From the NCBI GenBank assembly GCA_003149835.1, contig QAMX01000054.1, positions 1 through 7,376 of the forward strand: DNA of 7,376 bases, in the 5' to 3' direction. Made by a program: the position numbers and the translations under genes. The notes beneath the pieces were generated by a model, which did not search any database, was not told the origin of the DNA, and worked only from the letters and a program-made list of their open reading frames with translations. The stretch is from Clostridiales bacterium (lineage in GTDB: Bacteria; Bacillota; Clostridia; Oscillospirales; QAMX01). Shown in pieces: positions 1-2,248 of the stretch; the stretch's first letter is position 1, and each line of letters begins with the position of its first letter.

Positions 1-738
1 TCCGCGTTCAAAGACCGCGCCGGCGATCTCTTTCAATTCCTCCGGAAAACCGTTCTGCGGTTCCAGCGCGTTGATTCCGATACCGAGCACGGCGTATTCA
101 AGGCTCCCGTCCTCCATGCCGCAGACGCCCTCCGTGAGAATGCCGCAGATCTTTTTGCCGCCGCAGAACACATCGTTGACCCACTTGATCCCCGCCGGCC
201 TTCCCGAAACGGCCTCAACCGCCTCCGCCACGGCAACCGCGGCCGCCGTGGTGATAAAGAGCGCCTGTTCGGCGCCGATTTTCGGCCTCAGAATGACGCT
301 CATATAGACGCCTGTGTCATCCGGAGAAAAAAAGCTCCGGCGCATTCTGCCCTTTCCCGCCGTCTGGGTTTCGGCAACGACGACCGTCCCTTCCGGCGCG
401 CCCTGCCCTGCCAGCGCCTTGGCCGTATCGTTTGTAGAAGCAAGGGAGGGAAATACCTGTACCTGATAAAAGCCTTTGCCTCGGGTGAGCCGCCTTTCAA
501 CGCCGCCTTTGTGGACGGAATCCGTCTTCTCATTCAGCCGGTAGCCCCGGTTGGTTTGGGCGTCAATCTGAAACCCCTCTTCCTGCAAAAGCCGGATCGC
601 CTTCCACACCGCCGCGCGGCTCACCGCCAGCTGCTGGGCGAGCGCCTGCCCGGATAGGAAGCGGCCTTTCTCCCGATCCAAAAGCTCCAACACCTGTTCC
701 TTTAATGTCATGCGTTCAATCGCCTTTCTCTGATTCAT
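1..738 (-). CDS. birA: Bifunctional biotin-protein ligase / biotin operon repressor BirA (C-terminus cut by window edge)
   Basis: BirA makes biotinyl-5'-AMP from biotin and ATP, transfers biotin to a lysine of carboxylase carrier domains, and in holo form represses biotin genes. The 246 visible codons are uninterrupted to the left edge. Residues about 12-68 form the winged helix (SGQALAQQLAVSRAAVWKAI, then NRGYRL). The catalytic domain follows: STNDTA near 101, biotin/AMP loop GKGRMRRSFFSP at 128-139, YMSVILRP at 145-152, KWVNDV at 185-190, KKICGILTE at 195-203 (presumed catalytic Lys196) and GIGINA at 219-224. The C-terminal SH3-like domain lies outside the window. The loop has Arg where the family usually has Gly (GRGRxGRxW) and Phe for Trp. 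Start: ATG at 738 is in frame 36 nt after the predicted transcription start, with only a weak GGA ahead. ATG at 711 (MTLKEQ, weak AGAAAGG upstream) is a real alternative and fits the usual BirA N-terminus. It has its own promoter and a BirA operator. Confidence 0.95.
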   Translation of the reverse strand, partial: MNQRKAIERMTLKEQVLELLDREKGRFLSGQALAQQLAVSRAAVWKAIRLLQEEGFQIDAQTNRGYRLNEKTDSVHKGGVERRLTRGKGFYQVQVFPSLASTNDTAKALAGQGAPEGTVVVAETQTAGKGRMRRSFFSPDDTGVYMSVILRPKIGAEQALFITTAAAVAVAEAVEAVSGRPAGIKWVNDVFCGGKKICGILTEGVCGMEDGSLEYAVLGIGINALEPQNGFPEELKEIAGAVFERG

Positions 739-780: not shown

Positions 781-809
781 ATTATAGCATCTCCTCTTCC
801 ATTTGTCAA
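781..809 (-). promoter_or_regulatory. Consensus sigma-A promoter of birA
   Basis: On the minus strand the sequence reads TTGACA (804-809), a 17-nt spacer, then TATAAT (781-786). Both hexamers match the sigma-70/sigma-A consensus exactly and the spacing is optimal. A TG one base before the -10 gives an extended -10 (TGCTATAAT). The transcription start is expected near 774, about 36 nt ahead of the ATG at 738. The -35 lies fully inside the BirA operator half-site, so this strong promoter is probably held down by repression. Confidence 0.88.
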
Positions 810-834
810 CCACAATCATAATATCGGTTTACAT
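803..834. promoter_or_regulatory. Predicted BirA operator (biotin box) overlapping the birA -35
   Basis: The plus strand reads TTGTCAACC (803-811), 14 nt, then GGTTTACAT (826-834), an inverted repeat. The known comparative-genomics consensus for BirA sites is TTGTAAACC-N14/15-GGTTTACAA, so each half matches 8 of 9 positions and the spacing is canonical. One half contains the -35 hexamer of the birA promoter, so bound holo-BirA would block RNA polymerase. Inference: the birA transcript, and any biotin genes downstream beyond the left edge, is shut off when biotin is plentiful. Being next to the gene for the protein that binds this site strengthens the call. Confidence 0.87.
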
Positions 835-866: not shown

Positions 867-914
867 AAAAGCCGGGGGGCAGGCATCGAAACAATACGAT
901 GCCCGCCCCCCGGC
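867..914 (-). terminator. Intrinsic terminator after the 135-aa protein gene
   Basis: An 18-bp GC-rich stem (871-888 paired with 897-914, 8-nt loop) is followed on the minus strand by TTTTAT starting at 870. The only imperfect pair is G-U in the minus-strand RNA but A-C in the plus-strand RNA. The T-run is also on the minus side only, so it terminates leftward transcription. It closes the unit ending at 941 and insulates birA, which then starts from its own promoter. Confidence 0.9.
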
Positions 915-940: not shown

Positions 941-1348
941 TCAATCCCAGACAATGACGGCAAAGATATCCCTCTGCCTGCGCGGAGCCGTATCCAGCAT
1001 GCCGCCGACGGCGTACACGGCCAGCTCCGTCCCCTCTCGGATATCGGCCGGATCCACCGGCTCGCCTCTCGACGCCGACCAGAACAGAGTGAATTCGTTA
1101 AAAAACAGGCGAACTTTGTCTGTGTCGGAATATACCCTGACGGTGCGGTCGGTATCCTCCCTTATGGCCAGAACCCCGGATGCGTCCATATCCTCCGCCG
1201 TTTTGACGTTGTAAACGTTCAGGTCCGCAAACGGCGGCAGATAGTCGTCATATGGGTTGCGGTAATGCTTTCTCGCGGTAAAATAGCCGCCGGCAAAAAT
1301 TCCGGCCGCGACGAGCACAGCGCCGATCGTCAGCAAAAGCCGTTTCAC
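941..1348 (-). CDS. Small membrane-anchored protein of unknown function, 135 aa
   Basis: I do not recognise a firm family. The protein starts with a short basic stretch (MKR) and one hydrophobic segment at residues 4-24, which fits a signal anchor or uncleaved signal peptide. About 110 polar residues follow, probably outside the membrane. There is no lipobox cysteine. The C-terminal half is beta-rich and ends in LAVYAVGGMLDTAPRRQRDI plus a short hydrophobic strand. This loosely resembles the tail of small OB-fold secreted proteins such as DUF3221/YobA, but I would not name it on that. The start is GTG at 1348, set by a good GAGGAGG about 10 nt upstream. It is the last gene before a strong terminator and lies 96 nt behind the RraA-like gene, so it is probably on the same transcript. 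Confidence 0.8.
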   Translation of the reverse strand: MKRLLLTIGAVLVAAGIFAGGYFTARKHYRNPYDDYLPPFADLNVYNVKTAEDMDASGVLAIREDTDRTVRVYSDTDKVRLFFNEFTLFWSASRGEPVDPADIREGTELAVYAVGGMLDTAPRRQRDIFAVIVWD

Positions 1349-1444
1349 GACGAAGCGTCCCTCCTCGTTTTTTCTGTCATGCCATCCCGCCCGGGCGGTT
1401 CAGGTTGGAACATACCGGCTGCGGCGGCACGGATTGCCGCTGGT

Positions 1445-2173
1445 TCAGGCCTGGAAGTGTTCGGCTGCGGCGGCGTTGAAGCGGGCGACAGCCTCGGCGT
1501 ACCGGCGCACGAACTCCTCCTTCGGCATGCCCTGCACGTTCCGCGAAAGACTCAGAAGGTGATCGCATTCATTCTGATCCATAAACCGCACCGCGTCGAG
1601 CAGCCGCTCCGTATCGATTTCGTCGATGGCGATAAATCCGTGCTTATCGGCGTGAATCAAATCGCCTGTCCTGACCTTGACGCCGAACACCTCGACCTCA
1701 TGCCCCCAGCGCACCGGCGTGCTGTACGCATGGCCGACGCAGAGCCGGCGCGCCAGCGCGTGCATACCGGCGTTGGTCATCTCGTCGAGGTCGCGGACCG
1801 CGCCGTCCGTCACCGTCCCGACCGCGCCGAGCGCCTTGTGCAGGTTGGCGTTGACCTCGCCCCAGAACGAACCGATCGCATCCGTATCGCGGTCTTTGAC
1901 GACGATGATCTTCGGCCCGTCGATCTTCGCGAGAAATTCCATATATTCTCTCTGTGCGTCAGGGTTGTTTCGCTGATGCTCGGGATTAGAGGGCTCGATC
2001 TCGACCGTGACGGCCCAACCCGCCATGATTCCCATCTGCGGCATGAAGTCGCAGATGTCCTCGCGGTTGAAGCGGCCCTGCGTGCGTTCGAGGTGAGTGA
2101 TCTTTTCCCAGCCGTTGTAGATCGTCGGCGTATTCCAGCGTTTTAAATTCAAAATATCGGCGTTTGTCAGCAT
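1445..2173 (-). CDS. RraA / HMG-aldolase family protein, 242 aa
   Basis: Members of this fold (RraA-like, often mislabelled 'demethylmenaquinone methyltransferase') include Mg-dependent 4-hydroxy-4-methyl-2-oxoglutarate/oxaloacetate lyases and RNase E inhibitors. The hallmark is visible: GEVNAN at 105-110 leads into ALGAVGTVTDGAVRD at 114-128. Arg127 and Asp128 are the conserved substrate- and metal-binding pair, and GDLIHADKHGFIAI at 170-183 is the second conserved core strand. The protein is longer than E. coli RraA (about 160 aa), with extra N-terminal (about 40 aa) and C-terminal helical (about 55 aa) parts, as in catabolic members. Start is ATG at 2173 with AAAGGAA about 10 nt upstream. 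It follows the TIM-barrel isomerase by 75 nt. A lyase on a sugar-acid-derived keto acid is more likely than RNase E control, but the substrate is unknown. Confidence 0.88.
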   Translation of the reverse strand: MLTNADILNLKRWNTPTIYNGWEKITHLERTQGRFNREDICDFMPQMGIMAGWAVTVEIEPSNPEHQRNNPDAQREYMEFLAKIDGPKIIVVKDRDTDAIGSFWGEVNANLHKALGAVGTVTDGAVRDLDEMTNAGMHALARRLCVGHAYSTPVRWGHEVEVFGVKVRTGDLIHADKHGFIAIDEIDTERLLDAVRFMDQNECDHLLSLSRNVQGMPKEEFVRRYAEAVARFNAAAAEHFQA

Positions 2174-2196: not shown

Positions 2197-2244
2197 ACTC
2201 GGCATTAGCGCTGTAAACTTACAGCGCCAATGCCGAGTTTTTTT
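2197..2244 (+). terminator. Long hairpin with T-run on the plus strand only
   Basis: A 20-nt inverted repeat (2197-2216 against 2219-2238, with the innermost bases forming the loop) is followed on the plus strand by a run of seven T (2238-2244). This has the form of a rho-independent terminator for rightward transcription, yet every gene nearby runs leftward. In the leftward RNA the stem is followed by AUUGUG and then the RraA-like gene's ribosome binding site, with no U-run. It may stop antisense transcription, act as a processing or stability hairpin between the two genes, or be a leaky bidirectional terminator. The one imperfect pair is G-U in the leftward RNA and A-C in the rightward RNA, which argues the stem also matters in the gene direction. 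Confidence 0.65.
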
Positions 2245-2248
2245 ATAT

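What the first reader, a model, noticed from the sequence alone, without database searches (positions are those of the whole stretch)
781..834. BirA operator sits on the -35 of a full-consensus birA promoter: predicted autoregulation
TTGTCAACC-N14-GGTTTACAT matches the known BirA operator consensus at 16 of 18 half-site positions with canonical spacing. It contains the exact TTGACA of a TTGACA-N17-TGCTATAAT promoter that drives birA itself. In the classical E. coli arrangement the operator controls bioABFCD and not birA. Here the repressor would control its own synthesis, and possibly a co-transcribed biotin transporter or synthesis gene beyond the left edge. Such a loop would couple ligase level to biotin supply.
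Basis: partly seen in the sequence, partly recalled or inferred. Interest (0 to 1): 0.7.

Follow-up and report, generated by a model that had tools for sequence, protein, structure and literature searches.

The report
Self-regulated biotin ligase–importer operon
In an unnamed Clostridia-type bacterium the promoter of the biotin ligase and repressor gene birA carries the DNA box that its relatives carry in front of biotin genes, so BirA is predicted to turn down its own gene, likely together with a biotin importer gene just beyond the sequence; a tidy feedback loop of a known kind.

Summary
ATGTAAACC-N14-GGTTGACAA (minus strand, 834-803) matches the BirA operator consensus at 16 of 18 positions, and its right half holds the -35 of a 12/12 promoter for birA. 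Comparative data make it a real BirA box. It accompanies 58 of 96 sampled birA genes that encode the DNA-binding domain and 0 of 23 without it. In a phylum sample, 27 of 29 inspected strict boxes precede biotin genes.

One shift: the box goes with the biotin importer gene bioY. It is found at 47 of 49 HTH-type birA genes next to bioY and at 1 of 7 without bioY. In 37 of 38 loci with the box just before birA, bioY follows birA, including the syntenic nearest relative, where the genes overlap. The window ends inside birA, so its bioY is predicted. The likely mechanism is a self-limiting birA-bioY operon.

BirA autoregulation was predicted before (Desulfovibrionales, PMC5343134, passage). New member of a known kind; binding and biotin response are untested.

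The parts
803..834 (-). predicted BirA operator: half-sites 834-826 (ATGTAAACC) and 811-803 (GGTTGACAA), spacer 14
   Evidence: conserved in relatives
804..809 (-). -35 hexamer TTGACA inside the right half-site
   Evidence: same placement in 47 of 48 birA relatives with the box within 300 nt
781..789 (-). extended -10, TGC TATAAT (hexamer 786-781), 17 nt from the -35
1..711 (-). birA, start ATG 711, cut by the left edge; N-terminal HTH_11 and biotin protein ligase domain (Group II)
   Evidence: Pfam PF08279 and PF03099; full-length cluster P0001 also has PF02237; TIGR00121 over cut-off
871..914 (-). predicted intrinsic terminator of the upstream gene (18-bp stem), isolating the birA promoter
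   Evidence: -44.7 kcal/mol, z -8.4

Best explanation
The inverted repeat at 803-834 is very likely the BirA operator of a birA-bioY operon: BirA loaded with biotinoyl-AMP would bind it, cover the -35 of the birA promoter and turn down its own gene together with a bioY biotin importer gene predicted just beyond the left edge. Shown here: the repeat, its overlap with the promoter, the HTH and ligase domains of BirA, conservation of the same box on the same -35 in relatives, its link to the BirA DNA-binding domain and to adjacent bioY, and its presence before other biotin genes. Inferred: binding, repression, dependence on biotin, and bioY in this genome. When biotin is plentiful, holo-BirA would dimerise on the box and lower importer, ligase and repressor together, which makes the repressor level itself part of the loop.
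For: 16 of 18 match, beyond chance. Promoter 12/12 with the -35 in the right half. Footprint against the nearest relative: half-sites 17/18 and -10 6/6, against 5/14 and 5/16 in the gaps. Box with 58 of 96 HTH-bearing birA (48 within 300 nt, 10 in front of bioY-birA) and 0 of 23 HTH-lacking birA; Fisher p 2e-8, not corrected for relatedness; 33 of 56 clusters at 60% identity that contain HTH-bearing birA. Markov control 1 of 490. -35 in the right half in 47 of 48, with a -10 at 16-18 nt in 44 of 48 (204 of 960 random places pass the -10 test). Beside a TTGACA the left half scores 8-9 of 9 in 37 of 40 cases at boxed promoters, but 4-7 in the 6 cases at HTH-lacking birA and 3-6 in the 10 cases at HTH-bearing birA without the box within 300 nt. 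Gene order: 37 of 39 HTH-type birA-bioY pairs and 10 of 10 bioY-birA pairs have the box. Syntenic relative G069: hflC, PHP, TIM barrel, box, birA, bioY overlapping birA. Two genomes, G010 and G002, carry the box both at birA and before a bioY-bioB operon. Phylum sample: 27 of 29 inspected strict sites precede biotin genes. B. subtilis BirA binds three operators only with biotin and ATP (PMC4016012, passages).
Against: No own genome is held, so bioY downstream of this birA and other boxes in this genome were not seen. 38 of 96 HTH-bearing birA genes have no box at the threshold used, and 2 of 39 HTH-type birA-bioY pairs have none (L072, L077), so autoregulation is not universal in the group. 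The first base of the left half is off consensus here (A for T). TIGR00122, the curated BirA repressor-domain model, scores 45.7, below its cut-off of 70, though PF08279 passes. The HTH classes rest on an HMM trained on 95 of the same sequences, and 2 of the 23 HTH-lacking hits (L109, L110) have a stop inside the hit, so they could be broken HTH-type genes.
Confidence: 0.85

Rival explanations
1. BirA binds the box but birA here is alone: a dedicated birA autoregulatory loop with no bioY in the transcript.
For: bioY is outside the window; one relative (L069) has a box-like site 40 nt before birA and no adjacent bioY.
Against: In 37 of 38 loci with the box just before birA and downstream sequence at hand, bioY follows birA (within 600 nt), including the syntenic nearest relative.
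Confidence: 0.08
2. The repeat is the site of another repressor that happens to control birA and biotin import.
For: No binding data for this organism; several regulators use palindromes over a -35 (general knowledge).
Against: Box is absent at 23 of 23 HTH-lacking birA, two of them in birA-bioY order; 27 of 29 strict sites inspected in a phylum sample sit before biotin genes; BirA operators before bioY-type genes are shown by gel shift in B. subtilis, L. lactis and S. suis (PMC4016012, PMC4861984, PMC4877710, passages).
Confidence: 0.04
3. The symmetry is an accident of a strong TTGACA promoter.
For: GGTTGACAA contains the -35, so half of the repeat is under promoter selection anyway.
Against: The left half has no promoter role yet is conserved 8 of 9 with G069 against 5 of 14 in the spacer; TTGACA sites before HTH-lacking birA lack a good left half in 6 of 6 cases (scores 4-7 of 9); Markov copies do not reach 15 of 18.
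Confidence: 0.02

Closest known systems
Bacillus subtilis BirA regulon (bioWAFDBI, yhfUTS, yuiG)
   Same: Group II BirA, inverted-repeat operators before biotin synthesis and BioY-type importer genes; binding needs biotin and ATP (PMC4016012, passages)
   Different: the three reported sites do not include birA itself
Lactococcus lactis BirA1 / bioY1 and Streptococcus suis BirA / bioY
   Same: BirA box at the promoter of a bioY importer gene, shown by gel shift (PMC4861984, PMC4877710, passages)
   Different: in the passages read the box is at bioY; no autoregulation of birA is reported there
Desulfovibrionales BirA
   Same: predicted autoregulation; the paper says that BirA is autoregulated only there among the Proteobacteria studied (PMC5343134, passage)
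   Different: regulon there covers biotin and fatty acid synthesis genes; here the box belongs to a birA-bioY unit in Clostridia
Escherichia coli BirA / bioO
   Same: ligase-repressor with a palindromic operator
   Different: operator lies between bioA and bioBFCD, birA elsewhere and not under bioO (recalled)

Membership tests
Group II biotin protein ligase (BirA) | N-terminal DNA-binding HTH domain | tested here: met
   PF08279 60.3 bits, cut-off 25; but TIGR00122 45.7 is below its cut-off 70
Group II biotin protein ligase (BirA) | catalytic ligase domain and C-terminal domain | tested here: met
   PF03099, PF02237 in P0001, TIGR00121 131.8 over 83.1; the full-length BirA equivalog models NF008846 to NF008850 score below their cut-offs
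BirA operator | inverted repeat TTGTnAACC / GGTTnACAA, spacer 13-16 | tested here: met
   16 of 18, spacer 14; matrix score inside the relatives' range, above 21 of 48
BirA operator | overlaps the promoter of the target | tested here: met
   right half holds the -35; transcript start not mapped
BirA operator | same box before biotin synthesis or uptake genes in relatives | tested here: met
BirA operator | bound by BirA with biotinoyl-AMP | not testable with these tools
   needs gel shift
birA-bioY operon | bioY directly after birA in this genome | not testable with these tools
   window ends inside birA; no own genome; predicted from 37 of 38 relatives with the box just before birA

The most novel reading that the evidence does not exclude
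In this branch of Clostridia BirA autoregulation is common rather than an exception: one box on the birA promoter sets ligase, repressor and biotin importer together, in three gene orders (birA-bioY, bioY-birA, divergent bioY/birA). The amount of BirA itself then moves with biotin supply, unlike the fixed amount usually assumed from E. coli, so the biotin set-point is shaped by feedback on the sensor.
Probability: 0.65. Interest if true: 0.42.

Novelty: new member of a known kind. Interest (0 to 1): 0.32.

Why it matters
BirA is the textbook case of an enzyme that is also a gene switch, and in the E. coli picture its own level is not under its control (recalled). Here the sensor, the enzyme that uses biotin and the importer would share one operator. 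It gives a simple, testable case of a vitamin set-point with feedback on the sensor, in an order where BioY importers are common (226 of 295 sampled genomes match the BioY family).

Tried and rejected
A search of the window's own genome was not possible. A near-identity plasmid search found nothing and Rfam gave no match in the window at gathering thresholds. The closer family search (family of G069, 21 genomes) added no nearer relative than G069 itself. The alignment used unsuitable coordinates for four of six rows and is not used; the footprint rests. The first gene-order tally missed overlapping birA-bioY pairs and counted two loci twice; one search replaces it. The looser pattern also picks up chance sites: 12 of the 30 loci laid out were not labelled birA or bioY; 9 of these 12 lie inside a long reading frame and one (L092) lies between birA and bioY. 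Specificity is therefore judged on the stricter pattern. With a similar exact pattern only 7 of 16 chosen relatives match (G069 itself does not), because their birA boxes carry one or two off-consensus bases; the counts allow 2 mismatches in 18.

Considered and rejected: promoter coincidence and another regulator (see rivals).

Selection of rows: of 32 loci, L032 (distant proteobacterial hit) was dropped. From the 30 laid loci were used, plus 20 of 21 listed hits that lacked the HTH part (G140 left out, contig start) and 40 further hits in rank order, passing over G136, G150, G180 and G290 (G180 does carry a box near its birA). Loci L071 and L060 repeat L025 and L022 and were dropped from then on. 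Other hits, listed or not, were not examined. Downstream gene order was read only in the 59 loci; there 'birA-bioY' allows up to 600 nt between the genes (L067 and L078 have 443 and 577).

Full report
What is there. The window holds, all on the minus strand, hflK, hflC, a small ORF, a PHP-domain protein, an AP_endonuc_2-type TIM barrel, an RraA-like protein, a 135-aa protein without a family match, a strong terminator hairpin (914-871, z -8.4) and then birA, which runs off the left edge. Between terminator and birA lies one promoter, TTGACA-17-TATAAT with an extended TG, 12 of 12. Its -35 is inside the right half of ATGTAAACC-N14-GGTTGACAA (834-803), which matches the recalled BirA consensus at 16 of 18. 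No other place scanned in the window exceeds 13, and Markov copies do not exceed 14.

The protein. The window's birA encodes HTH_11 and the biotin ligase domain. The full-length cluster P0001 adds the C-terminal domain, scores 131.8 bits against TIGR00121 (cut-off 83.1) and is closest by sequence in the PDB to BirA/biotin ligase chains such as 6apw and 4ha8. Against this, the repressor-domain model TIGR00122 and the full-length BirA equivalog models stay below their cut-offs. I class it as a Group II BirA. The P0001 gene call starts at the ATG at 819, inside the operator. Homologues start at the position of ATG 711, and a transcript from this promoter could not contain 819.

Conservation. The nearest genome relative found is G069 (62% BirA identity), syntenic with the window: hflC 87%, PHP 74%, TIM barrel 88%, then birA. 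Its contig length equals that of P0006, which NCBI names Ruminococcaceae bacterium. There the half-sites are 17 of 18 identical to the window and the -10 is 6 of 6, while the spacer is 5 of 14 and the stretch to the -10 is 5 of 16. This is a footprint of selected bases. In a set of 119 distinct birA loci (31, 30 less two repeats, 60 fetched), 48 of 96 HTH-bearing birA genes have the box (16 or more of 18 on a relaxed consensus) within 300 nt, 10 more have it in front of an upstream bioY, and 0 of 23 HTH-lacking genes have it. The Markov control reached the threshold in 1 of 490. Relatedness is not corrected in the Fisher p of 2e-8; by single-linkage clusters at 60% identity, 33 of the 56 clusters with an HTH-bearing member include a boxed gene. 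In 47 of 48 the right half holds the -35, and in 44 of 48 a -10 follows at 16-18 nt. 38 of the 96 have no box at this threshold.

What the box is for. Read against gene order in 59 loci with downstream sequence, the box goes with bioY: 37 of 39 HTH-type birA-bioY pairs, 10 of 10 bioY-birA pairs (box before bioY), 1 of 7 HTH-type birA without adjacent bioY, 0 of 3 HTH-lacking, two of these three being birA-bioY pairs. By the coordinates there is also a divergent order, with the box between bioY and birA, in G086, G112, G116, G152, G166 and G170; G116 and G170 have two boxes. These are examples, not a count. G010 and G002 carry the box both at birA and before bioY-bioB. In a phylum-wide sample of 249 genomes a strict pattern hits 69 genomes, against 8 for the reversed control by my count of the table. 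Of the 29 new loci laid out by that call, 14 sites precede bioY, 7 bioB, 3 birA followed by bioY, and one each bioD, bioF and bioA. The other two precede a sodium:solute symporter beside birA and an ORF that reads like a GNAT acetyltransferase (my reading, no family search). The motif is therefore very likely the BirA operator of this phylum. The window's copy most likely serves a birA-bioY operon whose bioY lies beyond the edge.

Mechanism. Holo-BirA on the box would cover the -35 and block RNA polymerase. In B. subtilis the three BirA operators bind BirA only with biotin and ATP (PMC4016012, passages). L. lactis BirA1 and S. suis BirA bind bioY promoters (PMC4861984, PMC4877710, passages). 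Binding and repression in this organism are inferred.

Novelty. BirA autoregulation is on record as a prediction for Desulfovibrionales (PMC5343134, passage). Nine literature searches on BirA, bioY and autoregulation in this library (the listings show only 20 of 48 and 10 of 128 papers) gave no listed title, abstract start or passage read that reports it for Clostridia. The library lacks most subscription papers, including the 2002 Genome Research survey of BirA signals, and RegPrecise could not be read, so it may be listed there. I file it as a new member of a known kind, of modest interest.

Noticed in passing
L215 (G545:C15), box at 1501, ORF 1589-2953: A strict BirA box precedes a sodium:solute symporter (PF00474; nearest named models panF and PutP, both below cut-off), with birA just upstream on the same strand: a candidate BirA-controlled vitamin, perhaps biotin, importer of the SSS family.
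   Followed up: partly
window 1-711 (-): The ligase motif recalled as GRGRxGR reads GKGRMRR here: the last Gly is Arg. Among 87 motif hits in relatives only G069/L049 shares this; the database protein P0002 does too.
   Followed up: partly
window 811-819: Database start codon of birA (P0001) lies inside the operator; P0001 also differs from the window at residues 2 and 3, encoded by the operator spacer and the first base of the right half, so a variant of the box seems to exist in a near relative.
   Followed up: partly
G116:C13:157046-157115 and G170:C23:171905-171974: Two tandem BirA boxes between divergent bioY and birA.
   Followed up: no
window 941-2173 (-): RraA-like gene and a 135-aa protein without family match lie between the TIM barrel and birA; G069, otherwise syntenic here, has neither at that place.
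   Followed up: no
window 2198-2247: An inverted repeat (about 2198-2237) followed by a T-run on the plus strand, between the TIM barrel and RraA-like genes, which are both on the minus strand; read by eye only.
   Followed up: no
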